Below are positions 1 to 57,141 of a DNA stretch of 64,000 nt, in pieces. The stretch comes from Pyropia yezoensis (lineage: Eukaryota > Rhodophyta > Bangiophyceae > Bangiales > Bangiaceae). A program made the position numbers and the translations under genes. Below the pieces are notes generated by a model, which worked only from the letters and a program-made list of their open reading frames with translations, did no database searches and was not told the origin of the DNA. The DNA is taken from assembly GCA_009829735.1 (NCBI GenBank), contig CM020618.1, positions 1,615,547 to 1,679,546 of the forward strand. Reading direction: 5' to 3'. The number at the start of each line of letters is the position of its first letter. Positions within the stretch are counted from its first letter, which is position 1.

Positions 1-1422
1 GCTGCCTAGCTGCGACCACGCCGGAAGCGGTGTCGCCAGCTGCACCTTGGCCGGAGAAGACTGGTAGACCACCTGCGCCCAACCGAAGCCATCCAGACGC
101 GGGCGGTTCTGGTCGGCCAATCGCGTTCAAGAAGTTTCCGGTCATGCACCGGCACCAGACGCCGGAAGTCAATCATCGCCTGGAAGAGCCCCTTGTACTC
201 TTCGTCCTGGCTGCACAGGAAGTCGACGGTCAACTTGTCGACAATCCAGACCATCAGGAGGTCAGGGAGAAACCAAAGCCGGTTGGACACCAAGACCTCG
301 TGAAGCCAGTGGTTGGCCGCCAAGACTGTCATCTCGGACGTGTACATCATGTACGGGATCGAGTGGAAGAAGCCCTTGATCGACGCCTGAGTCAAGGCGT
401 CCAAGAAGTACCAGGTGAAGGGGATGCTGGAAGGAGCGAACCCGACCGGGATCTCGACTTCCTGCTGCTGCGGGATGACCTTGGGGTAGTACGCCGCCCG
501 GTTAGCCTTATCCAGCTTCCAGAACTCCTGATGGTTGCAGCTCACGAGGAAGTCACGCTGACGGCCGCGTCGCTCACCTTGCTCCCGTGCCGGTGACAAC
601 TTGGAGTACTTCCGGGTCAGGAAAGGCGGCTCCAGAGCGACCATGCTCGGATTGGGGTCGCAGTTCAGGCTCCCCGACCCCTTGAGCGCCTCCTCCCAGA
701 CCTTGAGCGCCCGGTGGACGCACCCTTCCTCCTCTGGCCACCGGAGAACGGACGCGGACACGCGACGCTCGCTCAAGGGTAGATCCAGCACCAGCGCGAA
801 GGGGAGATCCTCCAGACGAGCAACCCAAGAGGAACCCGAGAAGCTCTGGGAGCGGTCTTGTGCCAGGCGCATCTGGTCCGCCGTGTGAAGACGAGCCTTA
901 TCCATCTCTGTCAAGACCCCGCGCTGGAGTTCCTTGCGCCAGAGGTCCAAGCAATCCTGCTGGCACTGGGCCGCGCCGGCGTTGCCGACCACCGTGGAGT
1001 CACGCCGGGCCGCCAGAGGGTCCTGCCCAAGAAGCATCTCCGGGAGACCCACCGGGGGGGTCTCGACCGGGTGCATCACAGAAGCCGGGGGAACCCGATC
1101 CATCCCCGCCGTGGCGACCGGCGCCGACATCCACACCCGAGGAACCGGAGGCAGGAGAGGGGCGCGGCTACCCGAGTTCTCCTCCGCAACACTCGCCGCC
1201 GGAACCACGGGCCCAGCTTGGATCTCGGAACTGGACATGACGTCCAGACTCCGGGGGAACGAGAGGGCCAAGGTGAAGGAGCGAAGGGGGGCAGAGAACC
1301 GGAGCAGGTGATCGTGACCAGGGTGAAGACGCTCGACCTCGGCACCGGTGTGGACGTGCTCGAGGCTGTGCACGGTGGCACCTGGTTCGGCCCGAGGACG
1401 TGCCGGACTAGGGAGGGAGCTA
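1..1422 (-). pseudogene. Antisense accessory ORF of family A (aORF-A), N-terminal part, frameshifted
   Basis: This is the N-terminal part of the same antisense protein that is complete at 13300-15609, truncated by the window edge. The reading frame runs leftwards from the LTR at 1423 and matches the complete copy to about residue 430. Compared with 14182-14330 it then carries two single-base insertions (an extra C near 117 and an extra T near 138), after which the frame is lost. One amino-acid difference (His for Tyr) is seen near residue 377. It represents the 3' end of an A element whose gag and pol lie outside the window. Function unknown. The insertions sit in short homopolymers and could be sequencing errors. 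Confidence 0.6.
1410..1419 (+). other. Polypurine tract of the left A element
   Basis: The purine run AGGGAGGGAG lies 3 nt before the LTR that starts at 1423. In LTR retrotransposons such a tract primes plus-strand DNA synthesis. It marks the LTR at 1423 as a 3' LTR. Confidence 0.6.
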
Positions 1423-1993
1423 TGTAGCATCCCTGGCCCCGACTTGGCGCCGACCCGGGACTACAACCAGAGGGCACCAGGTGCCAGAACACGCCCGCCG
1501 TGTGGTGATGGTTGGCGGCCGTGGCCCGTGCCCGGCACTGGGATGCGGTGGACTACGCTATCCACACGTGAGAGAGGGACTGCTGATGGGTTTTTGCATA
1601 CTTGTGAGGGACTTGATTTGAGAGAAATTGAGTGTGAGATTAGTGAGTGGGAATAGAATTAGTAGTGATAGTGGCCCCCGACCTGACGAGGTTAGACTCG
1701 GGTCGGGGCCACTCGGGGTTATGGGGGGGCTACCTGGCCAACGTGCCGAGGCTCCCCCAGATGCACGTTAAGAGGGACAGCGAGGCGCCCTTGGCCCGCG
1801 CCCTCAGGAAAAAGACAACTGCGCGTTTGCTTTCCTCTTCCCCGTGTGCACTACCGTGCGTATCTGTTTGCTCTGCGAGCAGACACGTGAGGCAACAGGC
1901 ATACCATTCTCGTAGTTCCCCTTTCTGTGTTACCTGTCCCTTTCCCCCGAGGGATATTGACACGTGTCTGAGAGGATCAAGTTTTATACCACA
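1423..1993 (+). repeat. LTR 1 of family A (3' LTR type), 571 bp
   Basis: The LTR starts TGTAGCATCC and ends ATACCACA (TG...CA). It is followed directly by segment X and not by a primer binding site, and a polypurine tract precedes it, so it is the 3' LTR of an element whose body lies to the left. It differs from LTR 3 (15602-16172) by one base and from LTR 2 (6522-7092) by about five. It contains three CACGTG palindromes. Confidence 0.9.
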
Positions 1994-3084: not shown

Positions 3085-3087
3085 GGC

Positions 3088-6521: not shown

Positions 6522-7092
6522 TGTAGCATCCCTGGCCCCGACTTGGCGCCGACCCGGGACTACAACCAGAGGGCACCAGGTGCCAGAACACGCCCGCCGT
6601 GTGGTGATGGTTGGCGGCCGTGGCCCGTGCCCAGCACTGGGATGCGGTGGACTACGCTATCCACACGTGAGAGAGGGACTGCTGATGGGTTTTTGCATAC
6701 TTGTGAGGGACTTGATTTGAGAGAAATTGAGTGTGAGATTAGTGAGTGGGAATAGAATTAGTAGTGATAGTGGCCCCCGACCTGACGAGGTTAGACTCGG
6801 GTCGGGGCCACTCGGGGTTATGGGGGGGCTACCTGGCCAACGTGCCGAGGCTCCCCCAGATGCACATTAAGAGGGACAGCGAGGCGCCCTTGGCCCGCGC
6901 CCTCAGGAAAAAGACAACTGCGCGTTTGCTTTCCTCTTCCCCGTGTGCACTACCGTGCGTATCTGTTTGCTCTGCGAGCAGACACGTGAGGCAACAGGCA
7001 TACCATTCTCGTAGTTCCCCTTTCTGTGTTACCTGTCCCTTTCCCCCGAGGGATATTGACACGTGTATGAGAGGATCGAGTTTTGTACCACA
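6522..7092 (+). repeat. LTR 2, 5' LTR of A1, 571 bp
   Basis: Starts TGTAGCATCC and ends GTACCACA. A primer binding site follows after 4 nt. CACGTG occurs at 6664-6669, 6983-6988 and 7060-7065. Transcription of gag-pol should start inside this LTR, but no clear TATA box is visible. Confidence 0.92.
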
Positions 7093-7096
7093 TATT

Positions 7097-7305: not shown

Positions 7306-9066
7306 ATGGCTACCCTCCCTGGCACGACGGTGCCCGAAGGGGTAGACCCCGCGTCCGTTGACGCATCCCTGGTCACCGCGGGGGACGGTGCCCAGCCCGG
7401 CAATCTCCGTACGGGTGAAGCAGAGCTGGGTGTGACATCCGGTAGCGGACTGGAGTCTACTGGCGGCCAAGTACCTCGTGCTCCCGTTCCTCCGGCTGTT
7501 CCTCCTGTGGGAGCCACCCCGGGGTCAACGGCGTTTGAGTCCGCTCGCAGCAGACGTCTCCCTCCTGTCGGTTCTACTCCTCAACCTCCAGGGATAGCCC
7601 CTGGTGTGTTTACTCCTGGACCCACACATGGCAGCTGGGTGTATACACCTCTTCCTGTGGGCACTAGCAGTGCCAAAGGCACCGCTGTGACTGGTTCTAC
7701 GGGTCTTCCTGAGACTTCGACTCCTGGGACCGGCCAAGCTTTTCCTCCCCTTGCATCCTATGGGGCGGGGAGCTCCAAGACCGGTAACCGGAGCAGCCGT
7801 AGGCGTCGGCGTCGTCGCCGTCGCTCTAGCACCAGCGAGACCAGTTCCTCCAGCTCTGAGGAGGGATATGACTGGGATGCATCTCCCGGTCCCACCCGGC
7901 GCAGGATAGTCGAGTTTGACTTCCCTGCCCACAAAGTGGGAGTTGCCACCCTGAACAAGGCCACGTATTGGGGTAACTACCGGCTGGAGAACCAAGACCA
8001 AGGTTACACCCGGAAGATGGCCAAGAAGATGGCGTCCCTGAACCGGCGAATGCAGCCGAGCTTCGGGGGACATCCTAAGTTTTCCGGGAAGAGACCGGCG
8101 CTTATCTTTGCCTTCCTGCGCCGGTTTGTCAAGGCATGCAATGACAACGATGTGTCCGAGGGCAAGGCTCTCTACCTCCTGGTTAACTTCATGACCGGAG
8201 AAGCGGAACAGCGGTTTGCACAGGTTCTACCAGACTCTGCCGGACACATTGTCGGACGTACCGTCGCGAGTTATCCGGACGCGGTCAACTGGCTCCTGTC
8301 CAACTACGCTGACGCGGACTCTCTGCGTAAAGCAGTCGGCAGGCTGAACCGGGCAACCATGGAAAGACAAAAGACTCCAGAGGCGTTCGCCCGTCGTGTC
8401 CGGGAGATGAGCGATGCTTGTGGCAACGTTTACCCTGAGGACAGGCTCAAGATGATCTTCTCGGAAGGGCTTCCTGAATATCTTCAAGTGGATGCGGAGA
8501 ACTACAACCAGGAACATCAAGAGCATACCTTCCAGCAGTTGATGGCCTACACGCAGGGCAAGTACCGGCAAGCCAAGGCCCTCCAAGCTCCCATGGTATC
8601 AACTCCCAAGCCGTTGTCGCGAGTTCGTCCCGGACCCGACAAGTATAAGGGAGGTGATAGCCCTGTACCGGTACTCGCAGTTGGCGAGGCCTCACCCGTG
8701 GGGTCAGAGGACAAGTGGGGCGGCTTCGTTTCTAAGGAGCAACCATCCCTGGTCGCCCCCAAGCAAGTCAAGAACCAGCGGTTCCGGTCTTGTTGGCTGT
8801 GCCAGAAGGAGGATCACATGTCCTACCAGTGCCCGACCATTCCCAAGGACCTCCAGGAGAAACTCAAGCGTCAAGGACTGGTGTTTGCAAAGGCGGTGAA
8901 CTTGGCTGACCGGCGGGCACCCTCCAAGATGGACAAGGCACAGGTACATGCAATCCGAGTGGCAACCTTACAGAGCATCACGGAGGCTCTGACAAGGGAA
9001 GCTCCTACGGACTTTGACCTGGAGACCGAAACCTCTAAGGACTCCTCGGACCCGGGAAACGAGTAG
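7306..9066 (+). CDS. gag: Gag of A1 (586 aa)
   Basis: Gag forms the virus-like particle and packages the element RNA. The N-terminal 160 residues are Pro/Gly/Ser/Thr-rich. An Arg run and then a Ser/Glu run (about 163-187) lead into a capsid-like part with the signature FVKACNDNDVSEGKALYLL (about 270-290), shared with the Gag of B and C. A CCHC zinc knuckle, CWLCQKEDHMSYQC, lies at about 496-509 and binds RNA. The protein ends DPGNE. The ATG lies in CCAACATGG, the same context as in B. Upstream is a leader of about 190 nt with no ORF of note. Pol follows in another frame 128 nt downstream. Confidence 0.9.
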   Translation: MATLPGTTVPEGVDPASVDASLVTAGDGAQPGNLRTGEAELGVTSGSGLESTGGQVPRAPVPPAVPPVGATPGSTAFESARSRRLPPVGSTPQPPGIAPGVFTPGPTHGSWVYTPLPVGTSSAKGTAVTGSTGLPETSTPGTGQAFPPLASYGAGSSKTGNRSSRRRRRRRRRSSTSETSSSSSEEGYDWDASPGPTRRRIVEFDFPAHKVGVATLNKATYWGNYRLENQDQGYTRKMAKKMASLNRRMQPSFGGHPKFSGKRPALIFAFLRRFVKACNDNDVSEGKALYLLVNFMTGEAEQRFAQVLPDSAGHIVGRTVASYPDAVNWLLSNYADADSLRKAVGRLNRATMERQKTPEAFARRVREMSDACGNVYPEDRLKMIFSEGLPEYLQVDAENYNQEHQEHTFQQLMAYTQGKYRQAKALQAPMVSTPKPLSRVRPGPDKYKGGDSPVPVLAVGEASPVGSEDKWGGFVSKEQPSLVAPKQVKNQRFRSCWLCQKEDHMSYQCPTIPKDLQEKLKRQGLVFAKAVNLADRRAPSKMDKAQVHAIRVATLQSITEALTREAPTDFDLETETSKDSSDPGNE

Positions 9067-9194
9067 GGCAGGCGCTCTCCCCAAGCGTCTTCCCGAATCT
9101 CCGACGGCAGGGTACTTCTACCTGTTCTCCCCTTGCGTGCCGGGAGAAAGGACGGCAGTTACCCGCTCAACCGGTAGCCGCCTGGACACCCTGT

Positions 9195-12100
9195 TTGATC
9201 AAGGGGACATTGCTCGTCCTGCGTAAGGAAGACCTCAAGATTAATGCTCGTATGCGTGTGGGGGATAGCCTCCCCCAAGCTGTTACGCCGGTGGTTGACA
9301 CGGGAGCCGGACCAAGCGTCATCACTGAGAACCTGTTACCTCCGGGCTGGCGTCGACATGCCTGGAGAGCGCCTACCCGGACCCATATCGTCGACGCTTC
9401 GGGTCAAACCCTACGACCGCTTGGCCGCCTTCCTGTCGCCATCTATGTCAACAATGAACCAATGCTTTTTCCCTTTCTAGTAGTCAAGACCCTATCAGTC
9501 CCCCTCATCCTAGGCTGGGACTTCCAGAAGCAGCATGTCAAGAGCATCCTACCCGGAGAAGGGAAGGTGCAGTTCAACCATGGGTTTGTGTCACCGGTAT
9601 TGGAGCATCTGGACACCAAAGTTCGTGTAGCCAAGAACAAGAGGGAACGCATCCCACCCTCTACCTTGACTCTCTTCAAACCGGTGCTCCTACCTCCTCG
9701 CTCGGAGACCAAGGTTAAAGTAACGACCCGGATTGCAGGTCAATGCCTGATCTACGGACGTAAGGAATTTCTGGCGAAACACCGGTTATACTTGGCCCAC
9801 GGACATCACAAGAAGGTAGAAAGGCACACCCCGTTCCCGGTGCTGATCGTCAACGTGAGCCGGAAGCCAATAACCCTCGCCAAGGGCACCCGAGTTGGTA
9901 CAGCAGAGCCTTACCGGGGATCCGCCCGTGATATGAGCAAGGAAGACCTCCTGAACCTGCAACAAGAACTGGCATCCAACTTGACGGCCTTAGACGTACC
10001 TCCGAAACAAGAGCAGGCTGGCAGCGCTACTCCGAATCCCGAACAAGCACCACCCGGGATGCCGAAGGTCAAGCAAGAAAATGTCCCTCCCGACTTGAAG
10101 GAGGCACTGGAGAAGCTTCTCCAGGAATATCGGCACCTGTGGTCGGGAGAGCTGGGCAAGATGGACGCCACTCTACACCGGATTCAACTCAAGCCGGAAG
10201 CTAAGCCAGTACACCTGCTACCATACCGGGCTGGACCTCATCGCCAGGATGAGATTGAGAAGCAGGTTAACAAGATGCTCAAGATGGATGTTATCGAGCC
10301 GTCTGATGGCGAGTGGGCCTTCCCGGTGGTAGTCGTCCCGAAAACCGGCGGTCACTTCCGTTTCTGCGTTGACTACCGGCGCCTAAACGAGATGACAGTC
10401 AAGGACGTATACCCGATACCCCGGATGGATGATTGCCTCGACTTTCTTGGTGATGCCACCCTCTTCTCGACGCTGGATTGTGATGCCGGTTACTGGCAGA
10501 TCCCTCTGGCTGACGAGGACAAGGACAAGACCACCTTCACGTGCCACCTGGGACTATTCCGGTGCAAGCGTCTTCCTTTTGGTCTCACCAATGCTCCGGC
10601 CACTTTCCAAAGACCCATCGACATCATCCTGTCGGGGCTAAGGTGGAGAACATGTTTGGTCTACCTGGACGACATTATCGTTTTCTCCAAGACCCCAGCG
10701 GAACACCTGGAGCACCTTCGAGAGGTCCTGGCCCTCCTGTCCAAGGCTGGAGTTACCCTCAAGGCCGAGAAGGGCCACCTGTTTTAGACTGAGGTGGAGT
10801 ATCTGGGGCATGTGCTGAGTCCAGGGGAGCTCCGAGTCAATGAGAAGAACATCAAGGCCCTCCGGCATGCACGGCAACCCAAAAACCAGACGGAACTCAA
10901 GAGCTTCCTGGGTATGTGCAACGTCTATCGCCGGTTCGTACGGGACTATGCTCTGATTGCCCGGCCACTGACCAAGCTGACCAGCAAGAAGCTTCCCGCA
11001 CAACTCCCGGTGTTCGACGAGAAGCAGACCGTGGCCTTCGAAGAGCTCAAGAAGCGCCTGACCACCACTCCAGTACTGGCGTTACCCAAGCGGGAGGGCC
11101 AGTTTGTTCTGGAGACGGATGCCTGTGGCGTCCAGGTGGGGTGCTCACTACTCCAGCAGCAACCTGATGGGCACTTTCTCCCGATAGGCTACTACAGTCG
11201 CGTCTTGACTCCAGCTGAGAAGAACTATTCCACGACCGAGCGCGAGTGCTTGGCAGTCGTCTGGGCTTGCTTCCTGTTACGGCCATATCTTGAAGGACAA
11301 GAGTTCCTCATCCGGACGGACCACGCCAGCCTAAGGTGGCTGCTATGTATGGACAGCAGTCAAGGAAGGGTCGCCCGGTGGCGCCTACGCCTTTCGGAGT
11401 TCAAGTACAAGGTGTGCACCAGAGCAGGGAGGGAGCACCACTGCGCCGACACCATGTCCCGGCTGGAGACTCCTGCAGCCGATACCGGTCCTATCCCGGA
11501 GGAAATACCTTGCTTCATCCTCCCGAATGTTGGACGTGGCTGGCATGCTCCCCTGTATGAGACACCTGAAGCTCATCAACCGGTGACCATTCACCGGATG
11601 CTGGAGGCACAACTGACGGATCCTCAATGCTTGGAGCTTCGCCACCAAATGGACCTGAACCGGAACAGTCGTTTCTCCGAGTCTACGGACGGACTCCTAG
11701 TACGGGTGTCACCCTTCGATGGGGCCATTCAAGTCTACGTACCCCGGGGCCTACGAGCTGACATCCTACGCCTGGAGCACTCGTCTCCCCAGGCCGGACA
11801 TCCTGGTATCAATCGGATGTATGCTTCCATGAGACGACACTATTCCTGGGAAACCATGGCCAGTGACGTCCATAAGCACCTGGAGGCTTGTGTTTCGTGT
11901 GCAAGGAACCGGTTGTCCCAGAGGAAGAAGACTTCTAAGCTACGCCTATTCCCTGCGGCGGAGCCCTTTGCAAGCTTAAGCATGGACATCCTGGGGCCCC
12001 TACCTGAAACATCCAGTGGCAACATATACCTGCTTATCATATGTGACCGGTTCTCCAAGTTCACTCGAGCAATCCCGCTGAGGACCATCACGGCTCTGGA

Positions 12101-13154
12101 TGTCACGTCAGCCTTCTGCGAGTACTGGATAGCTGCCTACGGCCCTCCAGACTCCGTCTTAACCGACAACGGTCCCCAGTTTGCATCCCTGTTCTTCCAA
12201 GGAGCCTGTGACCTGATGGGCATCAAGAACTTGTACACTACGACGTACCACCCTCAAACGAACGGCCAGGTGGAACGATTCAACCGGACCCTAGTAGACA
12301 TGCTACGGCACTACGTGGAGGAGCACCAAGAAGACTGGGACGAGCTCCTGGCTGTCCTCACTCTAGCCTACAACTCCCGAGTTCACCGGACAACGGGGGT
12401 TGCTCCACTCGACTTTGTCACCCCAAGGCGGCTGACCAACTTCTCCCTGGAAAGAATACCAGACGGTCTCCAGCCTGCACTGAAGTCAGGTCCCAAGGCA
12501 AAGGATGAGTTCCTGGAACAACTGAAGCTCCTGCTCCCCAGAGTCAAGGAGTCAATATCGAAGACCCAGGAGCGATACAAGCGGGGCTATGAAAACGGCG
12601 TTCGGGAAAAGAACAAGGAACTGGGTGGTGGCGACTGGGTTTTTGTGGACAACCATAGCAAGACCCGGGGGAAGCTGGACTCTAAGACGGATGGACCTTA
12701 TGAGATCCTGAATACGGACGGTTGGACCTTTCTTCTAGACGTGGATAGCTCCCCGTACCGCGTGAGCAGCGACCATGTCACCCGAGCTCCACCGCCAAGC
12801 GAACGGGACTTGACCCGGCGCAAGCGGGCCGCAGTACCCTGGCTATCCCAAGAAGAAGGTCGGGAATATGTCTACGTCAAGTTTGTCGACCATGCCTGGA
12901 GAGACGGGCGCTTGTACCTGCGAGTACGCTGGTTCGGTTTTAACCCGGCAGATGATACCTGGGAACCCTCAAACCGGCTACCCATCGCGGATGTCTGTGC
13001 CTACACGCGACGGAACGGGATTGAGGGCACTCCAGTGGCCAGAGCCGGCAAGATTCTGGAGTCGGACTCGGAGGAGGACCAAGAGGATGGGGCCAACCAA
13101 GACCCTCGGGACGAGCCGAGCTCATCCGCAACGGATGCGGAACAAGAGGATTGA
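9195..13154 (+). CDS. pol: Pol of A1 (PR-RT-RH-IN-chromodomain), interrupted by one TAG
   Basis: Aspartic protease DTGA at about residues 35-38 (9297). Reverse transcriptase has YLDD at about 490-493 (10662). RNase H has LETDA (about 11110) and STTEREC. Integrase has an HHCC zinc motif (H in LEHSSPQAGH, C in CVSCARNR), and the catalytic D, D, E in MDILG (about 11980), LTDNGPQ (about 12163) and GQVERFNR (about 12270). A chromodomain (KFVDHAW...LRVRWFG...DTWEP, about 12870-13020) ends the protein and should steer integration to marked chromatin. TAG at 10785-10787 interrupts the frame just after RT; copy A2 has GAG there, so this is a point mutation. The start is uncertain: 9195 is a TTG and the frame is open further upstream, so Pol is probably made by frameshifting or internal initiation. 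Confidence 0.9.
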
Positions 13155-13299: not shown

Positions 13300-15609
13300 C
13301 TACTCCCGGCGCAGACGCTGAGCCGCGGGAGTGACCTCCAGCGCTGCTTCCGCGGCACGACGGAAACCGGAGGAAGAAGGGATGACGTAGTGCGGTGGAC
13401 GCGGTGCATCCCGGTATGACGCCATCGGAGTAGTACCGGTAGTTGCCGGGGGCTCCCGCTCATCCAGATATGCCCGTCGGCGCCCCTGGAAGCCTGTGAA
13501 GGTTTCTGACCACTGCTGGGCCAAGCCATGCCGCGTCAAGGTCGCCAGAAGTTCGCCAACCACCGGGCTGTTCGACATCTGGCCGCTGTCCGCGCAAGCA
13601 AACACCCGGTCAACCACGTTGTTCAAGACGCTGGCGTAAGTGCCCAGCACCAGGGAAGACCCGACGCCCTCAACCTGCACCGGAAGACGACCGAGCTGGT
13701 CTTCAATCATACCGACGTCGTACTGGTCGCATGTCGGGCCACCTTTGTTCAGGTACCAGTCAGGCACCCGGAAGCGGGTAAGGCGCAGAGTCGGCGCCGG
13801 AATCTCGAACCGCCCCGAGGATGCCACTACCGGACGGTCCACAACAGCCCCAGAAACCGGAGTCCCCAACTCCAGCGGAGGCACAGGGCCGCCAACGTTT
13901 GAAGAAGGCGTCCGAGGCAGAGCGGCCGGAGTAGTCGGCGACCGCGCAGCCACCCCCAGACTCGCTGCAGACAAGCGTGGTGCCGGAGGAGCTTGAAGCA
14001 CCGGCACAGACGGAGCGGAACGCAGACGCGCCGGCGACGGTTCAGGCGAGGCCACCGGGGCGACAGGTGCAACAGGAGGGAGCGGAGCCGCCGCAGACGC
14101 CCGACCGACCGCCGCGGCCCATCCCGACTCTTGCACAGGCGGCCCAGTCGGCAGAAGATCGAGGGCGACCGGAGCAGGAAAGCTGCCTAGCTGCGACCAC
14201 GCCGGAAGCGGTGTCGCCAGCTGCACCTTGGCCGGAGAAGACTGGTAGACCACCTGCGCCCAACCGAAGCCATCCAGACGCGGGCGGTTCTGGTCGGCAA
14301 TCGCGTTCAAGAAGTTCCGGTCATGCACCGGCACCAGACGCCGGAAGTCAATCATCGCCTGGAAGAGCCCCTTGTACTCTTCGTCCTGGCTGCACAGGAA
14401 GTCGACGGTCAACTTGTCGACAATCCAGACCATCAGGAGGTCAGGGAGAAACCAAAGCCGGTTGGACACCAAGACCTCGTAAAGCCAGTGGTTGGCCGCC
14501 AAGACTGTCATCTCGGACGTGTACATCATGTACGGGATCGAGTGGAAGAAGCCCTTGATCGACGCCTGAGTCAAGGCGTCCAAGAAGTACCAGGTGAAGG
14601 GGATGCTGGAAGGAGCGAACCCGACCGGGATCTCGACTTCCTGCTGCTGCGGGATGACCTTGGGGTAGTACGCCGCCCGGTTAGCCTTATCCAGCTTCCA
14701 GAACTCCTGATGGTTGCAGCTCACGAGGAAGTCACGCTGACGGCCGCGTCGCTCACCTTGCTCCCGTGCCGGTGACAACTTGGAGTACTTCCGGGTCAGG
14801 AAAGGCGGCTCCAGAGCGACCATGCTCGGATTGGGGTCGCAGTTCAGGCTCCCCGACCCCTTGAGCGCCTCCTCCCAGACCTTGAGCGCCCGGTGGACGC
14901 ACCCTTCCTCCTCTGGCCACCGGAGAACGGACGCGGACACGCGACGCTCGCTCAAGGGTAGATCCAGCACCAGCGCGAAGGGGAGATCCTCCAGACGAGC
15001 AACCCAAGAGGAACCCGAGAAGCTCTGGGAGCGGTCTTGTGCCAGGCGCATCTGGTCCGCCGTGTGAAGACGAGCCTTATCCATCTCTGTCAAGACCCCG
15101 CGCTGGAGTTCCTTGCGCCAGAGGTCCAAGCAATCCTGCTGGCACTGGGCCGCGCCGGCGTTGCCGACCACCGTGGAGTCACGCCGGGCCGCCAGAGGGT
15201 CCTGCCCAAGAAGCATCTCCGGGAGACCCACCGGGGGGGTCTCGACCGGGTGCATCACAGAAGCCGGGGGAACCCGATCCATCCCCGCCGTGGCGACCGG
15301 CGCCGACATCCACACCCGAGGAACCGGAGGCAGGAGAGGGGCGCGGCTACCCGAGTTCTCCTCCGCAACACTCGCCGCCGGAACCACGGGCCCAGCTTGG
15401 ATCTCGGAACTGGACATGACGTCCAGACTCCGGGGGAACGAGAGGGCCAAGGTGAAGGAGCGAAGGGGGGCAGAGAACCGGAGCAGGTGATCGTGACCAG
15501 GGTGAAGACGCTCGACCTCGGCACCGGTGTGGACGTGCTCGAGGCTGTGCACGGTGGCACCTGGTTCGGCCCGAGGACGTGCCGGACTAGGGAGGGAGCT
15601 ATGTAGCAT
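13300..15609 (-). CDS. Antisense accessory protein of A1 (aORF-A, 769 aa)
   Basis: One uninterrupted frame of 769 codons on the strand opposite gag-pol, filling the space between pol and the 3' LTR. The first ATG (15607-15609) lies inside the LTR edge; Met65 (15417) is an alternative start. The middle (residues 295-455) is rich in Trp, Tyr and hydrophobic residues and looks folded. Residues 465-600 are Pro/Ala/Ser-rich and probably disordered. A helical segment follows (about 625-700). No zinc finger, chromodomain or catalytic motif is recognised. Three blocks match the antisense ORF of family B: RAAYYPKV at 311-318 with VEIPVG after it, SE-x2-VLA at 365-371 with E and LW after it, and DQNRPR at 439-444. 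Function unknown; regulation of the element or a structural role are guesses. Confidence 0.75.
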   Translation of the reverse strand: MLHSSLPSPARPRAEPGATVHSLEHVHTGAEVERLHPGHDHLLRFSAPLRSFTLALSFPRSLDVMSSSEIQAGPVVPAASVAEENSGSRAPLLPPVPRVWMSAPVATAGMDRVPPASVMHPVETPPVGLPEMLLGQDPLAARRDSTVVGNAGAAQCQQDCLDLWRKELQRGVLTEMDKARLHTADQMRLAQDRSQSFSGSSWVARLEDLPFALVLDLPLSERRVSASVLRWPEEEGCVHRALKVWEEALKGSGSLNCDPNPSMVALEPPFLTRKYSKLSPAREQGERRGRQRDFLVSCNHQEFWKLDKANRAAYYPKVIPQQQEVEIPVGFAPSSIPFTWYFLDALTQASIKGFFHSIPYMMYTSEMTVLAANHWLYEVLVSNRLWFLPDLLMVWIVDKLTVDFLCSQDEEYKGLFQAMIDFRRLVPVHDRNFLNAIADQNRPRLDGFGWAQVVYQSSPAKVQLATPLPAWSQLGSFPAPVALDLLPTGPPVQESGWAAAVGRASAAAPLPPVAPVAPVASPEPSPARLRSAPSVPVLQAPPAPRLSAASLGVAARSPTTPAALPRTPSSNVGGPVPPLELGTPVSGAVVDRPVVASSGRFEIPAPTLRLTRFRVPDWYLNKGGPTCDQYDVGMIEDQLGRLPVQVEGVGSSLVLGTYASVLNNVVDRVFACADSGQMSNSPVVGELLATLTRHGLAQQWSETFTGFQGRRRAYLDEREPPATTGTTPMASYRDAPRPPHYVIPSSSGFRRAAEAALEVTPAAQRLRRE
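15589..15598 (+). other. Polypurine tract of A1
   Basis: AGGGAGGGAG, 3 nt before the 3' LTR. Primes plus-strand synthesis. Confidence 0.65.
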
Positions 15610-16172
15610 CCCTGGCCCCGACTTGGCGCCGACCCGGGACTACAACCAGAGGGCACCAGGTGCCAGAACACGCCCGCCGTGTGGTGATGGTTGGCGGCCG
15701 TGGCCCGTGCCCGGCACTGGGATGCGGTGGACTACGCTATCCACACGTGAGAGAGGGACTGCTGATGGGTTTTTGCATACTTGTGAGGGACTTGATTTGA
15801 GAGAAATTGAGTGTGAGATTAGTGAGTGGGAATAGAATTAGTAGTGATAGTGGCCCCCGACCTGACGAGGTTAGACTCGGGTCGGGGCCACTCGGGGTTA
15901 TGGGGGGGCTACCTGGCCAACGTGCCGAGGCTCCCCCAGATGCACGTTAAGAGGGACAGCGAGGCGCCCTTGGCCCGCGCCCTCAGGAAAAAGACAACTG
16001 CGCGTTTGCTTTCCTCTTCCCCGTGTGCACTACCGTGCGTATCTGTTTGCTCTGCGAGCAGGCACGTGAGGCAACAGGCATACCATTCTCGTAGTTCCCC
16101 TTTCTGTGTTACCTGTCCCTTTCCCCCGAGGGATATTGACACGTGTCTGAGAGGATCAAGTTTTATACCACA
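15602..16172 (+). repeat. LTR 3, 3' LTR of A1, 571 bp
   Basis: Same ends as LTR 1. One difference from LTR 1 and about six from LTR 2. The antisense ORF starts at its left edge, so any antisense promoter would have to be in this LTR. Confidence 0.92.
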
Positions 16173-16585
16173 CTCACCACTTGATGCCTTAAAAAATTAT
16201 ACGCATCCAAACAGTTTCTGCAAACCCTGAGTACACGATACTCACAGGACTCACCAGCAAGCCGTTCGCCATGTAAGTCACTTGCAAGACAAACCCTTCC
16301 TTCTCCTCATGGATACAGCCACAGTGTGAGAAAGAACCCAGGTATGTACGGGCTGCTTGAATGCGCACGCCTCAACTGCCGGTCCTTTGGTTCAAGCGCG
16401 GACGATGGAGCAACCTCAATGGAGCGCTGCTCCAGCATCAGAGCTCTCACTGCGCCACAGCCCCCGTCGACAGTAAAAACCAGGGAGGGCTTTCGTGCGA
16501 TGAACAGCTATAGCCAAAAGAAAGAGATACACCAGTGCAATATGCCTTAGAACAGGACGAGCTACTGTGACTACCGTGCATCAAC

Positions 16586-17263
16586 ATGAAAGCATTCTTT
16601 GCAAGCGGCCGTGGGAAACGGACATTGGTGGAAGCGTCACAGGCGGGATGCCCGCCGTTCTGGGTCTTCTGTGACACAAGCGCAGCGCTCGTGTCTGGCC
16701 GGGGGGTGGGTGGAGTTCGGGTTGGTCGTCTGCCACGGGGTGTGTATCCAGGGTGGCCGACGCAGAGGCATCTTCGTCGCCGAGCGCGCGAAGCCCGACG
16801 TTCCAGTCACGGCGACGGGTGTCGTGTCAGTGAGGGGTTGCTCTTAGTGGAGTTGAGGAGCGGTTACCAGTCGGTCCCAGGTTTAGAAGTGCTACTAAAT
16901 ACTCTCTTACCCCGGACGAGCGTGAGCATTTACGGCTGCGGTGACCGCCTGTTTTTGATGTCGAAAATGAGCTCTGAAGGAGGGCGCCACTCTCGGGCGC
17001 ATTCCTCGATTAAGCGTTGCTCCCAGCCTAGCCTTCAGCTCGGACGTTGGAGCGCAGTCTGCCGTGCTGAGTACGATAAGGGAATTCATGACGAGAAAGG
17101 CAAAGTTCAAAGAACAACGAGTGTCCACTTGAATTTTGAATGGTGCGACTTCGCTGAGTGCCCTTGGGAGGGCTGCTCAAAGCCGCAGTGCGAAAAAAGC
17201 AGTTCATTCGGCTCGAAAGTTTTGGAACGGTTCCTTTTTGTGCAGCGCGACACCACAGAATGA
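16586..17263 (+). CDS. Hypothetical ORF in segment X, copy 2 (225 aa)
   Basis: Identical to the ORF at 2407-3084. No family recognised and coding status is doubtful. Confidence 0.2.
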   Translation: MKAFFASGRGKRTLVEASQAGCPPFWVFCDTSAALVSGRGVGGVRVGRLPRGVYPGWPTQRHLRRRAREARRSSHGDGCRVSEGLLLVELRSGYQSVPGLEVLLNTLLPRTSVSIYGCGDRLFLMSKMSSEGGRHSRAHSSIKRCSQPSLQLGRWSAVCRAEYDKGIHDEKGKVQRTTSVHLNFEWCDFAECPWEGCSKPQCEKSSSFGSKVLERFLFVQRDTTE

Positions 17264-17266
17264 GGC

Positions 17267-17878
17267 TTGGACGATGTCGCGCTGGCCCTGTTGTGCTCTG
17301 GTGACAGCGCCGTCGAATCACGTCAGTCGAAGAGGACCTGGCACCAAGCGTCGGTCTCTGCTGGATCCGCCACCCCCGCCCGCTTCAGCAAGTCGGCCCT
17401 TCGTTCCCCTGCCTGTGCTTTCGTTGTCCCAGGGTGTTCACACGGCTCCACAGGAGCTCTGTCGCTGCTGGCCATATCATTGCTTCCAATGCCGCGCAGG
17501 ACGAGGCCAGGCGCTCGCGCGATGGCACTGTGGATCTACCGCGGCAACGAGGGGCTAGCTGTTAAGCAACTCGCCCCGCCCCCCGAGGATGCTCTCTTGT
17601 GGCCACGATTCTGGCGTCCCAGCTACCGAAGCACCGACGCAACCTCACGTGACTTCGGACCTGTGACAGCAAACGCTCCAGACGCCGCCGTGAGGTTTTC
17701 TTCTGTCCAGCACTCCAACCGCCGTCGTTGCAGCCGCCAATTGTCGCCTATGACCAGACAGCGCCGCCTCCCCACAGATCGCTTGCCTACCACTCCCTCT
17801 TCTTCCATCCCCTGCGACAGTGACCAGCGCCTCTTGCTGGTCGTCTGTCACGGTGACCTTCGCCCTCGGTTGCTTTGA
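17267..17878 (+). CDS. Hypothetical ORF upstream of the recombinase, copy 2 (203 aa)
   Basis: Copy of the ORF at 3088-3699, with one silent change near the end. It is in the same frame as the recombinase ORF and separated from it by one TGA. Confidence 0.2.
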   Translation: MDDVALALLCSGDSAVESRQSKRTWHQASVSAGSATPARFSKSALRSPACAFVVPGCSHGSTGALSLLAISLLPMPRRTRPGARAMALWIYRGNEGLAVKQLAPPPEDALLWPRFWRPSYRSTDATSRDFGPVTANAPDAAVRFSSVQHSNRRRCSRQLSPMTRQRRLPTDRLPTTPSSSIPCDSDQRLLLVVCHGDLRPRLL

Positions 17879-17908
17879 GGCAGGGGAGGCGCACCTTACT
17901 ACTCGTAC

Positions 17909-20517: not shown

Positions 20518-20632
20518 CATTGGCGCTGCCGCAGCGTGGACAAGAGAGTGAGTGACCTGATGTGTGCTTAAACCCCTGCCTGGTACTCTGTTCTTTAAAA
20601 CTCTCTCGTCATCTCGCCCTCCACGCTGTACG

Positions 20633-20649
20633 GGCACCTCAGAGGTGCC
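20633..20649. other. 17-bp palindrome, copy 2
   Basis: GGCACCTC-A-GAGGTGCC, identical in sequence and position to copy 1. Confidence 0.4.
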
Positions 20650-20700
20650 GCTTGAAAATGGCGCCACGGTGGGCTCAAGGTACTTCCTCCCGATGTTCTG

Positions 20701-21271: not shown

Positions 21272-21275
21272 TATT

Positions 21276-21293
21276 TGGTGGAGCAGCAGGGGA
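21276..21293 (+). other. Primer binding site of A2
   Basis: The same 18 nt as in A1, again 4 nt after the LTR. Confidence 0.85.
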
Positions 21294-39802: not shown

Positions 39803-42800
39803 ATGATTGCATGTACTACTACGCCTTGTTCTACGGTACTCCCTTGCGGGGCCCCTGCTTTTGGGCCCAAAGAGTGCAACCCAGGGAGGCCCTATGCGTT
39901 AAAAGGGACCCTCCTGGTGCTACGAAAAAGAAACTTCGAAATCAACGTGGCCATCCAGTTGACGGCACAACACCCAGCGAGGCCTACGAAGGCGGTCTTG
40001 GACACCGGAGCCGGCCCAAGCGTTATTAGGAAGGTCTTCTTGCCTAAGGACTGGCGACGCTACGCCTATAGGCCCCCGAAATCAACGCGGGTCTGTGACG
40101 CATCGGGACAGCTTCTACGAGCCCTTGCCGTACTGGAGGTGGCCGTCCTAGTTGGGGAAAAGGCCAAAGTGTTCACCTTCTTGATCGTCAAGGCCCTATC
40201 CGTTCTGGTTATCTTGGGGATGGACTTCCAGAAGCAGTACGTAAGGGCCATCTACCCGGGAACGGAGGCCGTGCGTTGGAATGACAGGGCGCTTACGGAG
40301 GCCATCAGGGTACGGGAGGGCAAGGACCTGCCGGCCCCCAACAAGCATGGCAACTCTCCGCGGATCGACCCGGCGGCCCTGTGCCTCTCCAAGTCCGTCA
40401 CGATTGAGCCCTACTCGATTCAGGCCGTCTACGGTCGATGCGGGACTACTGGGCGGTGCTTGCTGTGGGAGAGACCTGTTAAGATGGCCGAGAAGGGCGT
40501 CTTGTTCCACAACGCGCTGGCCAACGTCAAGGCCCGGCGGGACTTTAAGTTCTTCCTCACCAACATCACCAGCCGGCCTGTTAATCTCCCCAAGGGTTAT
40601 GCGGTTGGCCTCGTTGAGCCCTACGATGGGCCTGTCTACAAGATCTACGAAGGGCCGTGCTCACCCCCTGGCGAAGGGGCCGCCCCAATTGGAAGGCTGG
40701 TTCAAGGCCCAAGAGTCGAAGCCGGGGAAGCGCAAGGACCCAAATTGAACACAGGGCAGGCCCACGACGCTTCACATACGAACGGTGAAGCGGAGGCTCT
40801 AAATCAGGACGGCCCCAAGATGCCGCGGATTGCCTACGAGTTCATCCCACCCGAATTGCACGAAGCCGTACGAGATTTGGTGGCCCGCTACGGGGGATTA
40901 TGGGATGGCCAGCTAGGCCGTATGGACATCACGCCCCATCGTATAACGTTGACGCCGGGGGCCAAGCCGGTACGTTCGCAGCCCTACCGCACGGGTCTCT
41001 ACCACCGTCAGTTGATAGCGGAGCAGGTGGCCAAGCAGCTCAAGCTGGAGGTTATAGAGCCCTCGCAAGCCGAATGGTCCTTCCCGGTGGTCATCGTGCC
41101 AAAATCCGACGGCACTCCGAGGTTTTGCGTGGACTACAGACGACTCAACGATATGACGGTCAAAGATACCTACCCCCTTCCACGGATGGACGACTGCATT
41201 GACTTCCTGGGGGAGGCCACCGTCTTTTCGATGTTGGACTGCAATATGGGCTACTGGCAGATCCCTGTGGCCGTCGAGGACCAAGACAAGACGACGTTCA
41301 CCTGCCATGAGGGGACCTACAAATACGTACGGCTTCCATTTGGCCTGACCAACGCACCTGCTACTTTCCAAAGGGCCATCGACATGCTACTGGCGGGCCT
41401 CAAGTGGAAGACGGTGCTGGTTTACCTGGACGATGCTATTGTTTCTTCTCGGACGGCCCAAGAACACCTGGGCCACCTCGAAGAGGTCTTCTCCCTGCTA
41501 GCCAAGGCCGGCGTATCCCTGAAGGCCAGCAAGTGCTTCCTCTTTCAAGAGGAGGTCGAGTACTTAGCCCATATTGTCGGCAAGGGGCAGGTCCGAGTGA
41601 ACGAGAAGAATCTCGTGGGCCTTAGGCAAGCGGAGCCGCCAAAGACCAAGAAGGGCCTGCGTAGCTTCCTAGGCATGTGTAATGTCTATAGGAGGTTTGT
41701 GAAGGACTACGCGGAGGTGGCCCGGCCTTTGACGGCCCTCACCAGTACGAACATCTCCGACCCGCTGCCCAAGTTTACGAAGGAGCAGCTGAAGGCCTTC
41801 GAGGACCTCAAGTGGAGGCTGACCCACACACCCATTTTGGCCCTCCCGCGACGAAAGGGGCAGTACACGGTCGACACGGACGCCAGTGCTACCCAAGTTG
41901 GCTGTGTCCTACTCCAAGAGCAGCCAGAGGGTGGCCTCAAACCTGTCGGGTACTGGAGTCGGCCCCTGTCGCAGGCCGAAAGGAACTACAGTACCACCGA
42001 GCGCGAATGATTGGCCGTAGTGTGGGCCCTCTTACTCCTGCGGCCCTACCTTTTGGGCACACGTTTCATCGTGAGGACGGACCACACAGCCCTCAAGTGG
42101 ATGCTCCACATGGATGGAGCACATGGCCGGTTGGCCCAGTGGCGGCTACGGTTGGCCGAGTTTGACTACATCGTGGAGGCGCGGGCCGGCGCGGCCCATC
42201 ATGCTGCCGACACCATGTCAAGGCTCAAGACGACGGGGGTCGACACGATGCCCATCCCGGAGGAAATCCCCTGTCTACTCACGTTGGCCAACTTCGCTCG
42301 TGGCTGGGTGGCCCCCTATCCTAAGACGAACAAGGGCTTCCCCCCCCTCACTGTGGAGCGTCTGATTAGGGCCCATTCTACGGACGCACGCTGCGTCGAA
42401 ATCCGGGCCGAGATGGACAATAATACCCACTCAAGGTTTGGGGAGACTCCCGACGGCCTACTCGTGCGGCTGAGCCCCCTTGACAAGGCCGTCCAAGTGT
42501 ACGTGCCCGAGGGCCTACGCCAAGAGGTCCTGACGTTGGAGCACAACCCGGCCCACGCTGGCCACCCGGGAGTTAATAAGATGTACACCTCCATGCGGCG
42601 GGCCTACTATTGGGAGTCTATGGTGGCCGATGTCTACAACTTTGTGGCCAATTGCAGCGCCTGTGCCAAGGGCAAGGTGAGGGGCCGATGACGGACAGCG
42701 CCCCTTCGCCTATTTCCTGCGTCTGAGCCCTTCACGGACGAATGCTTGGACTTGTTCGGCCCCTTCCCCGTGTCGGCCAGCGGTAATCGATTCCTGTTGG

Positions 42801-43966
42801 TCATCGTTGACCGCTTCTCAACGCTGACTCGCGTGGTCCCAATCCCGAAAGAGGACGCGGAAACGGTGGCCTCAGCGTTTTGTGACACGTGGGTGGCCTC
42901 TTACGGGCCACCGGACACCCTCTTGACGGACAATGGGCCGCAGCTAACCTCCGCCTACTTCCGCGGGTTTTGTGGGATGCTGGGCACCGGCCACCTCACC
43001 TCGACGACCTACCATCCGCAGACGCAAGGCCAGGAGGAACGCTACAACCGGACTATCGTGGCGCAGTTGAAGGCCTACGTATCGGAACATCAAGAGTCGT
43101 GGGACGACCTAGTCTCTGTCCTTACGTTGGCCTACAACTCACGGCCGCAGCAGAGTACAGGTGTGGCCCCCCTCAAGTTTGTGGTACCAGAGCGGGTCCG
43201 CAACCTTTCCCTCGAGCGAATGCCGGCAACGCCCTACCCCAAGGAGGTACCCAAGACGGCCAGGGCGGCCCGCGAGTATCATCGGGCCCACCTACGTAAT
43301 CTGGTCCATCAGGTACGCAAGGCCTTGGCGTCCGCCCAACGAAGGTACAAGCGGGCCTACGATAAACGGGTCAGGCCGGTGAACAAGACCCTCCGGGTGG
43401 GGGATTGGGCCTACATTGATGCCAACATCCAGAACCCCAAGAAGCTGGATCAGACGGTCCTGGGGCCCTATCAGATTGTGGGACGCGACGACCACACCTT
43501 CGCTGTCATGATGGATGGCCATCCGGAGCGGGTTAGTGGGGACAACGTGGCCCGCGCCCCTACCCCCACGCACCAAGCAGACTCTTCGACCATCCTTCGT
43601 GGGCCGCAAGGCGTGGCGGTGCCGTGGGACCATCGGGAAACAGGCCACCAATTTACATGGGAGCGCTTCGTGGACCACACGTATGACGTGGAGGGCAAGT
43701 TGTGGCTGCTTGTACGCTGGTGGGGCTACGCGGCCGAGGAGGACACTTGGGAGCCGCACGACGGTGTGGAAGAGCGCAAGGTGGCCGAGTACTGTCGCAG
43801 GGTGGGCGTCTCTGTGCCCTCAACGTCGGCCGAGATCAGGGCGCTGTGGGGCCCCCTCCAAGACCTTTGTGATCCGGACGTGGAGCTGGAGGAGGGGCCC
43901 ATGGTGGATGACTACGTGGGCCTGGTGGAGGCGCTCACGCTGGACCAGGACCCTCGGTGGGCCTGA
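39803..43966 (+). CDS. pol: Pol of B (PR-RT-RH-IN-chromodomain), two in-frame TGA stops
   Basis: Starts with an ATG 57 nt after gag, in another frame. Protease VLDTGAGPS (about residues 66-74), RT with YLDD (about 41425), RNase H with STTERE, integrase with zinc motif (LEHNPAHAGH, CSACAKG) and catalytic D, D, E in LDLFGPF, LTDNGPQ and GQEERYNR, and a chromodomain (ERFVDHTYD...LLVRWWGY...DTWEP) near 43660-43770. TGA at 42008-42010 replaces the Cys seen in A after TTERE, and TGA at 42689-42691 follows GKVRGR; reading stays in one frame throughout. In MDILG of A the Met-Asp is Leu-Asp here. Both stops recur in the inverted copy, so they predate the duplication. Confidence 0.9.
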
Positions 43967-44315: not shown

Positions 44316-46085
44316 TTATTGGTCACGCGGACGGCCGTTCCGATCCCATAGGCCCGCCTCCTCGTCACACTCCCGGCCACGCACCCGAGATGCAAAGTTC
44401 GGCTGCCGACGGCCGTACTCGCGCTGGGCCGCCGTCTCCGCCAGTCCCACCTCCCGACGAATAGACTCCCGAGTGGCAGGGAGGCCCACAAGGTCCAACA
44501 ACTGTTGCAGTTCGTGGATGGGCGGGCCCCCATGACGAGAGGCCCACCTACCAACCTCGACGCCCACATCGGCCAACACGTGAAACAGACCCGCAATGAA
44601 CGGACCCACACGGACGGAACCAGAGGCAGCCCCCGATGACCCAAGAAGTGGGGCCAAGCCCTGACTCACCTGCTCCGAGACCCGGCCATCAAGAGATGAC
44701 AGCGCCTCATCTGGGCCGTCGCGGTGGGCCATCGGGGACGCCATCAGCATTCGTGGGGCCGACGAGGAGGGTACGACGGCCGGCGGCGGGAGAGTTGGAA
44801 CGGCAGCGGCGGGGTTAGCGGGCGAGTTGACCATCATCCGCTCCGCCTGGTCCCCCACCATCTCTCGGGCCTCCATCACGTCCCTACTGTACCGCAGCGG
44901 GAAGGGAGCTAAGTCCTCGTCCACGTGGGCCGTCGCAGATTCCGCACCCCTGCTCGATGCGAATGGCAACCCAAGAGCCCCGGTCCCGCCGATTCTCGTC
45001 CTCCAACTTGAGACGGTCCGAGAAGGCCGTCGTAGGTGGAAGGTGGTCAAGGAGGGCCAGCATGGCCCCCAACTCCGCTACGGCTACCATGTCGACACCG
45101 CCCGGGCCCACACAAACCGTCTCAAGTCCCACGCGGAGACCCCACTGCCGGAGCGGTCGAGAGAAGAGCCATAGTTGGCGGGCCTTGCGGTACTCATCCA
45201 CCAAGTAGGCCCCAGCAAGGACGGCCCACTCCGACCGGAAGACGTTCCACGCCCAAGCGTTGTTGGCCAACAGGAGATCCTTGAGGTAGGTCAACGACGG
45301 TGGCATGTCCACCATAGCGCCATAAGGGACCTCAACGGCCGACCACCAAGGGGGCACTCGTGGGTAGTGGGCCGCCCGGATGGTGACTGGGCAAGAGGGG
45401 AACTCCGCCTCATGCCAATCCACGAAGAACCCGCTGCTCTTAGTGCGGCAGAACCGGTGGGCCGTCACGAGCTGATGCGGGGGCCGAAACCCGGGGCGAC
45501 CGATGAAGGGGTGGCCATCACCACGTACTCGGCCAACGGGGAGGGGGGCATCTGGGCCATCACGACCGTCGCCAACATCGACCTGGCCGCCTTGGTGTTG
45601 CCAAACTCCGCTTCATGACGCACTACCGTGATGGCCTCGCTGCGATCGTCGGCCCCCGGCACGTAGGCGTCCTTCATGGCCACCATCTGCTTGCGGAAGG
45701 AGTTCCCGCGGCTACCACCATCAATGGCCAACATGGTACGGTGGGCCAACGTCGAGGTAGTCCACCCGCGACCACGCTCGCGCTCCCACGCTTGGGCCCA
45801 TCCCGCCATGTCGTGCTCGTCGGCCGGCAGGGCACCCACCGCCGACTCGTACGGGACCGCCTCCTGCCCCTCCGTCGCCACCGGGCCCTCCATGTCGACG
45901 ACAAGACCCACAACGAGAAGGTGGCCGTCGTCGGCCAAGCACCCGACGAGGAGGTAGCCGAGAATGTGGTGACAGGGGAAGAGGGGCGCTGACGAGGAGA
46001 TGGCCGACAAGGTGACAGGAGAGGAGAAGGGGGAGCTCCCCCCTGGATGTGGTGGTTGGCCGACAACAAGGACCGGCAGACCCAC
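44316..46085 (-). pseudogene. Antisense accessory ORF of B (aORF-B), two frameshifts
   Basis: Three overlapping minus-strand frames read in order: 46085-45465 (206 aa), 45468-44884 (194 aa) and 45050-44316 (244 aa). Together they cover the space between pol and the 3' LTR, as aORF-A does in family A. The middle piece has RAAHYPRV with VEVPYG (near 45378), SEWAVLA with E and LW (near 45234) and DENRRDR (near 45000), in the order and spacing of aORF-A. The last piece has a Pro/Ala-rich linker and a helical end, again as in A. The junction between pieces two and three is at a GGGG run. Both junctions occur unchanged in the inverted copy. No domain is recognised; function unknown. Confidence 0.65.
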
Positions 46086-55259: not shown

Positions 55260-57141
55260 GTGCAGGAGGGGTACGCCCGGGCCACACTAAGGGTGTCGGA
55301 GGGGAGCGAAGGCCACGGGAACGGACGTGAGGGACCAGGTACCAGGGATAAGAAGGCCATCGGTGGGGGAGTGTGGGTCTGCCGGTCCTTGTTGTCGGCC
55401 AACCACCACATCCAGGGGGGAGCTCCCCCTTCTCCTCTCCTGTCACCTTGTCGGCCATCTCCTCGTCAGCGCCCCCTCTTCCCCTGTCACCACATTCTCG
55501 GCTACCTCCTCGTCGGGTGCTTGGCCGACGACGGCCACCTTCTCGTTGTGGGTCTTGTCGTCGACATGGAGGGCCCGGTGGCGACGGAGGGGCAGGAGGC
55601 GGTCCCGTACGAGTCGGCGGTGGGTGCCCTGCCGGCCGACGAGCACGACATGGCGGGATGGGCCCAAGCGTGGGAGCGCGAGCGTGGTCGCGGGTGGACT
55701 ACCTCGACGTTGGCCCACCGTACCATGTTGGCCATTGATGGTGGTAGCCGCGGGAACTCCTTCCGCAAGCAGATGGTGGCCATGAAGGACGCCTACGTGC
55801 CGGGGGCCGACGATCGCAGCGAGGCCATCACGGTAGTGCGTCATGAAGCGGAGTTTGGCAACACCAAGGCGGCCAGGTCGATGTTGGCGACGGTCGTGAT
55901 GGCCCAGATGCCCCCTCCCCGTTGGCCGAGTACGTGGTGATGGCCACCCCTTCATCGGTCGCCCCGGGTTTCGGCCCCCGCATCAGCTCGTGACGGCCCA
56001 CCGGTTCTGCCGCACTAAGAGCAGCGGGTTCTTCGTGGATTGGCATGAGGCGGAGTTCCCCTCTTGCCCAGTCACCATCCGGGCGGCCCACTACCCACGA
56101 GTGCCCCCTTGGTGGTCGGCCGTTGAGGTCCCTTATGGCGCTATGGTGGACATGCCACCGTCGTTGACCTACCTCAAGGATCTCCTGTTGGCCAACAACG
56201 CTTGGGCGTGGAACGTCTTCCGGTCGGAGTGGGCCGTCCTTGCTGGGGCCTACTTGGTGGATGAGTACCGCAAGGCCCGCCAACTATGGCTCTTCTCTCG
56301 ACCGCTCCGGCAGTGGGGTCTCCGCGTGGGACTTGAGACGGTTTGTGTGGGCCCGGGCGGTGTCGACATGGTAGCCGTAGCGGAGTTGGGGGCCATGCTG
56401 GCCCTCCTTGACCACCTTCCACCTACGACGGCCTTCTCGGACCGTCTCAAGTTGGAGGACGAGAATCGGCGGGACCGGGGCTCTTGGGTTGCCATTCGCA
56501 TCGAGCAGGGGTGCGGAATCTGCGACGGCCCACGTGGACGAGGACTTAGCTCCCTTCCCGCTGCGGTACAGTAGGGACGTGATGGAGGCCCGAGAGATGG
56601 TGGGGGACCAGGCGGAGCGGATGATGGTCAACTCGCCCGCTAACCCCGCCGCTGCCGTTCCAACTCTCCCGCCGCCGGCCGTCGTACCCTCCTCGTCGCC
56701 CCACGAATGCTGATGGCGTCCCCGATGGCCCACCGCGACGGCCCAGATGAGGCGCTGTCATCTCTTGATGGCCGGGTCTCGGAGCAGGTGAGTCAGGGCT
56801 TGGCCCCACTTCTTGGGTCATCGGGGGCTGCCTCTGGTTCCGTCCGTGTGGGTCCGTTCATTGCGGGTCTGTTTCACGTGTTGGCCGATGTGGGCGTCGA
56901 GGTTGGTAGGTGGGCCTCTCGTCATGGGGGCCCGCCCATCCACGAACTGCAACAGTTGTTGGACCTTGTGGGCCTCCCTGCCACTCGGGAGTCTATTCGT
57001 CGGGAGGTGGGACTGGCGGAGACGGCGGCCCAGCGCGAGTACGGCCGTCGGCAGCCGAACTTTGCATCTCGGGTGCGTGGCCGGGAGTGTGACGAGGAGG
57101 CGGGCCTATGGGATCGGAACGGCCGTCCGCGTGACCAATAA
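55260..57141 (+). pseudogene. Antisense accessory ORF of B'
   Basis: Mirror copy of the antisense ORF of B, here on the plus strand: frames 55260-55940, 55990-56574, 56408-56713 and 56707-57141. The blocks RAAHYPRV, SEWAVLA and DENRRDR are unchanged. The two frame breaks of the left copy are present, with added one-base indels near 55478, 55917 and 56695. Confidence 0.6.

What the first reader, a model, noticed from the sequence alone, without database searches (positions are those of the whole stretch)
13300..15609. Homologous antisense protein in two different chromovirus families
Seen: family A has an open 769-codon frame on the strand opposite gag-pol, between pol and the 3' LTR. Family B has an antisense ORF (44316-46085) in the same place. 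Three blocks agree in order and spacing: RAA-x-YP-x-V followed by VE-x-P-x-G; SE-x2-VLA-x6-E-x6-LW, 54 residues further in A and 48 in B; D-x-NR, 53 and 57 residues after the LW. Gag, pol and LTRs of A and B have diverged strongly, so the antisense gene is an old, kept part of these elements or has been exchanged between them. Known: extra ORFs, some antisense, occur between pol and the 3' LTR in certain plant Ty3/gypsy lineages and in the Chlamydomonas element REM1, whose antisense protein has PHD and chromodomains. No such domains are visible here, so this looks like a different protein family. Inference: regulation of retrotransposition, silencing or packaging.
Basis: partly seen in the sequence, partly recalled or inferred. 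Interest (0 to 1): 0.9.

Follow-up and report, generated by a model that had tools for sequence, protein, structure and literature searches.

The report
Ancient antisense gene in algal retrotransposons
Several families of virus-like jumping elements in a seaweed genome (very probably nori) carry the same extra gene on their opposite strand; it is kept by natural selection and inherited together with the element's own enzymes, and what it does is not yet known.

Summary
Family A has an intact 769-codon antisense frame at 13300-15609 (-). Family B's antisense region, broken into three frames here, encodes a homologue: BLASTP E=2e-7, profile-profile E=2.9e-19, 71 bits against a B-like profile with 3.4 bits for the best of 200 shuffles. 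The gene belongs to a superfamily in this genome: of 14 diverse loci fetched, 12 have a Ty3/gypsy integrase on the opposite strand beside it. Over 12 elements, aORF and integrase identities correlate (r=0.967, 0 of 9999 permutations) and both trees have one topology: old and co-inherited, not exchanged. Among 23 A copies dN/dS is 0.29, like pol (0.26-0.35) and below gag (0.46). No Pfam domain was found. The core of one member is predicted as a helical domain (pLDDT 83, pTM 0.84) without a convincing match in PDB or viral models. Two relatives are from P. vietnamensis. Antisense accessory ORFs are a known kind in plant elements; this is a family without detected relation to them, in chromodomain elements of a red alga. 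Function, probably nuclear regulation, is inferred.

The parts
13300..15609 (-). antisense gene of family A (aORF-A), 769 aa; residues 146-412 match the B-like profile
   Evidence: dN/dS 0.287 over 23 copies
6522..7092 (+). 5' LTR of family A
7306..9066 (+). gag of family A (weak zinc knuckle, 15.5 bits, under Pfam's cut-off)
9195..10787 (+). protease and reverse transcriptase of family A
10794..13154 (+). RNase H, integrase and chromodomain of family A (chromodomain 20.7 bits, under the cut-off of 25.1)
15602..16172 (+). 3' LTR of family A; holds the first ATG of aORF-A at 15609-15607 (-)
6..1430 (-). partial aORF-A (474 aa) of the neighbouring copy, within the 99.5% identical repeat of 14182-25210
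44316..46085 (-). antisense gene of family B, broken into three frames
42746..43966 (+). integrase and chromodomain of family B (chromodomain 26.8 bits, over the cut-off)
39803..42010 (+). protease, RT and start of RNase H of family B
55990..56571 (+). core of the antisense gene in the second, inverted B copy
   Evidence: G000:C1:1671536-1672117

Best explanation
A protein-coding accessory gene that is an old part of a lineage of chromodomain Ty3/gypsy elements in a Bangiales red alga. It sits tail to tail with pol, before the 3' LTR, and is read from the opposite strand. Shown by computation: homology across families, protein-level selection, co-inheritance with the integrase, a predicted compact helical core with P/A/S-rich stretches around it. 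Inferred: it is transcribed from an antisense promoter in or next to the 3' LTR, apart from gag-pol, and its product works in the nucleus on the element's own DNA or RNA (transcription, escape from silencing, or RNA export) in favour of the element, as others have suggested for the antisense genes of plant Grande and Retand elements. The confidence given is for the mechanism; that it is a selected protein gene co-inherited with pol I hold at about 0.95.
For: dN/dS 0.287 in 23 copies, like pol; N/S 1.11 against 2.07 expected, 0 of 300 simulations as low; same tree as integrase, r=0.967; 12 of 14 loci with integrase on the opposite strand beside it; 42 of 58 listed A copies and 55 of 62 listed E copies without a stop; core model pLDDT 83.3, pTM 0.84; no membrane-like stretch in 3 proteins tested (highest 19-residue hydropathy 1.54); family E proteins end in an arginine/serine-rich tail. 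Precedent: Grande gene23 is described as nuclear with its own promoter, Retand TRP28 as predicted to bind DNA (PMC7264820, parts 1-2 of 3 read; PMC11963269, passages).
Against: No direct evidence of expression, localisation or binding. No recognisable DNA- or RNA-binding domain. A and L031 proteins are not basic overall (K+R 73 against D+E 75, and 67 against 72). Stops among the variants of A copies are as frequent as expected by chance (7 against 7.1), so dead copies are in the sample. N-terminal codons 1-150 of A show little constraint. The core model is of a B-like member (L031), not of A.
Confidence: 0.5

Rival explanations
1. The protein works in the replication particle or on the genomic RNA in the cytoplasm (a second structural or chaperone protein), not in the nucleus.
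For: Layout of low-complexity N-terminus, helical core and, in family E, a basic tail recalls a gag-like protein; constraint is like that of pol.
Against: No BLASTP similarity to gag of A or B; no capsid among Foldseek matches, though a missing match proves little; coding on the opposite strand uncouples it from gag-pol RNA.
Confidence: 0.2
2. A self-limiting factor: the antisense gene product or its RNA damps the element's own activity (copy-number control), for instance through double-stranded RNA where the convergent transcripts overlap.
For: pol and aORF are convergent with about 111-567 bases between the frames in the 8 loci measured and in A and B; double-stranded RNA is discussed for plant antisense ORFs (PMC7264820).
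Against: A purely RNA function does not explain selection on the protein. A copy that lost a self-limiting gene should spread, yet it is kept in the sampled families.
Confidence: 0.2
3. A remote member of the plant TRP28 (PF04195) antisense proteins, inherited or exchanged between plant and red algal elements.
For: Same place and strand in the element. The order of conserved residues published for TRP28 (G, P, L, P-N, F; PMC11963269, passage) is loosely like that of the red algal core; this is my reading, not a test.
Against: 0 of 26 proteins match PF04195 at E<=10 and the whole-genome search gave no candidate (weak test, its control rang only in Escherichia coli and under the cut-off). TRP28 elements are non-chromovirus and reported from flowering plants only.
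Confidence: 0.07
4. A frame without function, open by chance or composition.
For: High G+C sequence (64% in 14001-16000) favours long open frames, and many ORFs over 150 aa are listed in the window.
Against: Homology across families with dN/dS well below 1 and the same tree as the integrase.
Confidence: 0.02

Closest known systems
Antisense additional ORFs (aORF-3R) of plant Ty3/gypsy elements: Grande gene23, RIRE2, Retand with TRP28 (PF04195)
   Same: [quoted passage not shown] PMC11963269)
   Different: No PF04195 match; here the carriers are chromodomain elements of a red alga, whereas Retand is a non-chromovirus lineage of flowering plants
REM1 of Chlamydomonas reinhardtii
   Same: An algal Ty3/gypsy element with coding on the reverse strand
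Boty of Botrytis cinerea
   Same: Antisense ORF between pol and 3' LTR outside plants (PMC7264820)
   Different: Sequences not compared
HTLV antisense gene read from the 3' LTR
   Same: Antisense promoter inside the 3' LTR as a model for expression (mentioned in PMC7264820)
   Different: No sequence comparison made; similarity of plan only

Membership tests
aORF-3R (antisense additional ORF between pol and 3' LTR) | Antisense and between pol and 3' LTR | tested here: met
   Family A in full; integrase on the opposite strand beside the gene in 12 of 14 loci (their LTRs were not mapped)
aORF-3R (antisense additional ORF between pol and 3' LTR) | Present in many copies and conserved like gag-pol proteins | tested here: met
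   42 of 58 and 55 of 62 listed copies without a stop; dN/dS 0.287 against 0.264-0.461
aORF-3R (antisense additional ORF between pol and 3' LTR) | Transcribed in antisense | not testable with these tools
   No RNA data at hand
TRP28 / Transposase_28 (PF04195) | Match to the PF04195 profile | tested here: not met
   0 of 26 proteins at E<=10; genome search without a candidate
TRP28 / Transposase_28 (PF04195) | Common fold with TRP28 | not testable with these tools
   No TRP28 sequences or structures were at hand
   No such Pfam match in 14 and 26 proteins
Env-like protein | Transmembrane segment | tested here: not met
   Highest 19-residue Kyte-Doolittle mean 1.54, 1.31 and 1.23 in 3 proteins; the customary limit of 1.6 is recalled
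Chromodomain Ty3/gypsy element (carrier) | RT - RNase H - integrase order with a C-terminal chromodomain | tested here: met
   B: chromodomain 26.8 bits, over the cut-off of 25.1; A: 20.7, under it; 6 of 10 neighbour frames of other loci match at E<=0.01, each under the cut-off
Chromodomain Ty3/gypsy element (carrier) | Place in the chromovirus clade of an RT tree | not tested
   No reference RT set was fetched

The most novel reading that the evidence does not exclude
A whole lineage of red algal chromodomain retroelements has a further core gene, coded on the opposite strand, whose protein has a fold not seen before; it has travelled with pol since before the families split and is needed for the element's success as a nuclear factor acting on its own chromatin or RNA.
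Probability: 0.4. Interest if true: 0.78.

Novelty: new variant of a known kind. Interest (0 to 1): 0.66.

Why it matters
Antisense genes of LTR elements have been described for years without a known function. Here is one without detected relation to the described domains, with good evidence of protein-level selection, co-inheritance with pol over deep divergence, and a core of about 340 residues that is predicted to fold and could be expressed and solved. That makes the question of what such genes do open to direct test.

Full report
Host. The window lies in a genome of 107,475,971 bases whose three large contigs measure 43,592,136, 34,331,705 and 29,385,039 bases. The published Pyropia yezoensis assembly has three scaffolds of 43.6, 34.3 and 29.4 Mbp (PMC7423979, passages seen).

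The observation. Frame A is real: 769 codons from ATG, minus strand, 13300-15609. It begins just inside the 3' LTR and ends 145 bases from the pol frame with RNase H, integrase and a weak chromodomain. The next Met in frame after the LTR is residue 65. Counting distinct codon differences among 23 copies, N/S is 1.82 and 1.88 over codons 1-64 and 65-150, against 1.23-1.50 in the four later segments, so the N-terminal part is less constrained and the start used is open. In family B the same place holds three overlapping frames that a B-like profile matches in order: this copy is a broken form of one protein gene.

Homology. A against the B core: 37.7 bits, E=2e-7. A against a profile of 13 B-like sequences: 71.2 bits, main match residues 146-412; best of 200 locally shuffled A proteins 3.4 bits. 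Profile to profile, B-like (13 sequences) against A-like (11): probability 99.2, E=2.9e-19 over 238 columns. The A-like set comprises A, its near-copy P0005 and three further families; without A and P0005 that profile still finds A with 32.2 bits, best shuffle 10.4, and the B core with 55 bits.

Extent. A genome search with the B core returned 150 matches, as many as were scored of 1,883 candidates, with open frames up to 978 aa. With A it returned 58, as many as were scored, spanning residues 1-768 or 1-769, 42 of 58 without a stop. With family E (L042) it returned 62, as many as were scored, 55 of 62 without a stop. These are lower bounds. I fetched 14 diverse loci with flank and later 6 short ones. 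In 12 of the 14 an integrase lies on the opposite strand beside the aORF; about 111-567 bases separate the two frames in the 8 loci where I measured it, 145 in A and 349 in B. In a Pfam scan of 10 neighbour frames, 8 match an integrase domain and 6 a chromodomain at E<=0.01, the chromodomains each under Pfam's cut-off.

Descent. For 12 elements (A, B and 10 loci) the identities of the integrase region and of the aORF core correlate at r=0.967, reached by 0 of 9999 permutations, and the two FastTree trees have the same topology as I read them; one split has low support (0.47 and 0.48) in both. The aORF evolves faster, for instance 24% against 43% identity between A and B. The simplest reading is that the gene was in the common ancestor of these families and was inherited with pol. 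Of 7 proteins found with a mixed profile, 2 are annotated in P. vietnamensis; 3 EukProt gene models belong to the family, species not shown.

Selection. Nei-Gojobori pairwise means: aORF dS 0.0342, dN 0.0098, ratio 0.287 (23 copies); gag 0.461 (14); PR-RT 0.347 (9); RH-IN 0.264 (16). With the variants re-dealt among sites of the same trinucleotide context, N/S expected for the aORF is 2.07 (sd 0.24), observed 1.11, and 0 of 300 simulations are as low; gag 17 of 300, the two pol pieces 0 of 300 each. Stops among aORF variants are not rarer than expected (7 against 7.1), and 5 of the 23 copies carry stops, so dead copies are included. Among variants shared by two or more copies the aORF has 43 synonymous, 22 non-synonymous and 0 stop changes against 22.5, 41.0 and 1.5 expected.

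The protein. No Pfam match in 14 members at E<=1 other than RT and a weak protease in one, the chimeric L038; in 26 members at E<=10 one match, E=1.8. A search of the genome with PF04195 gave no candidate, but its controls rang only in Escherichia coli under the cut-off, so it is a weak test. The core of L031 (366 residues, alignment of 26 sequences) is predicted with mean pLDDT 83.3 and pTM 0.84, 27 residues under 50; it is mostly helical with a long helix at 233-258 and strands at 328-336 and 339-344. Foldseek and VIA found no convincing relative among solved chains or viral models. No membrane-like stretch was seen in 3 proteins. Family E proteins end in an arginine/serine-rich tail.

How it probably works. 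The genomic RNA is of the wrong sense for this gene, so a promoter in or near the 3' LTR is needed (inference). Expression apart from gag-pol suits a regulator better than a particle component. In plants, Grande gene23 is described as a nuclear protein with its own promoter and Retand TRP28 as predicted to bind DNA (PMC7264820, parts 1 and 2 of 3 read; PMC11963269, passages). I put about 0.5 on nuclear regulation in the element's favour and 0.2 each on a particle role and on self-limitation. That it is a selected protein gene co-inherited with pol I hold at about 0.95.

Novelty. Antisense ORFs between pol and the 3' LTR are a known kind. A family without detected relation to the described ones, in chromodomain elements of a red alga, whose predicted core lacks a structural match so far, is a new variant. 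No paper describing it was recognised in searches, judged by titles and starts of abstracts in a library that lacks most subscription journals.

Noticed in passing
window 1-11031 and 14182-25210: A 14.18-kb unit (part of A, LTR, a 5-kb stretch X, LTR, A) is repeated at 99.5% identity: a local duplication or an assembly artefact.
   Followed up: partly
window 2407-6338: The stretch X between A LTRs encodes frames without a Pfam match of weight; its last frame (5505-6338) has a look of a tyrosine recombinase (recalled, not tested). The genome search gave two full copies, both in this window, and a few diverged partial matches.
   Followed up: partly
window 37458-47179 and 54280-64000: Two family B copies in inverted orientation, 99.87% identical over 9.7 kb with the same broken frames.
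   Followed up: no
window 49123-52417: A 1.65-kb tandem duplication (89% identity) holding two frames 86% identical to each other and similar to part of family B gag (E 7e-8 and 1e-8).
   Followed up: no
just after 7092 and 37890: A and B share an 18-base stretch right after the 5' LTR that begins TGGTGGAGC, the place of a primer binding site.
   Followed up: no
P0010 (P. vietnamensis MMPV_002403): A gene model that joins a gag-like N-terminal part (Copia-like as I recall) to an aORF core: annotation artefact or a chimeric gene.
   Followed up: no
window 24001-26000: G+C falls to 46.5% where the next A copy breaks off, against 55-69% in the other 2-kb bins.
   Followed up: no
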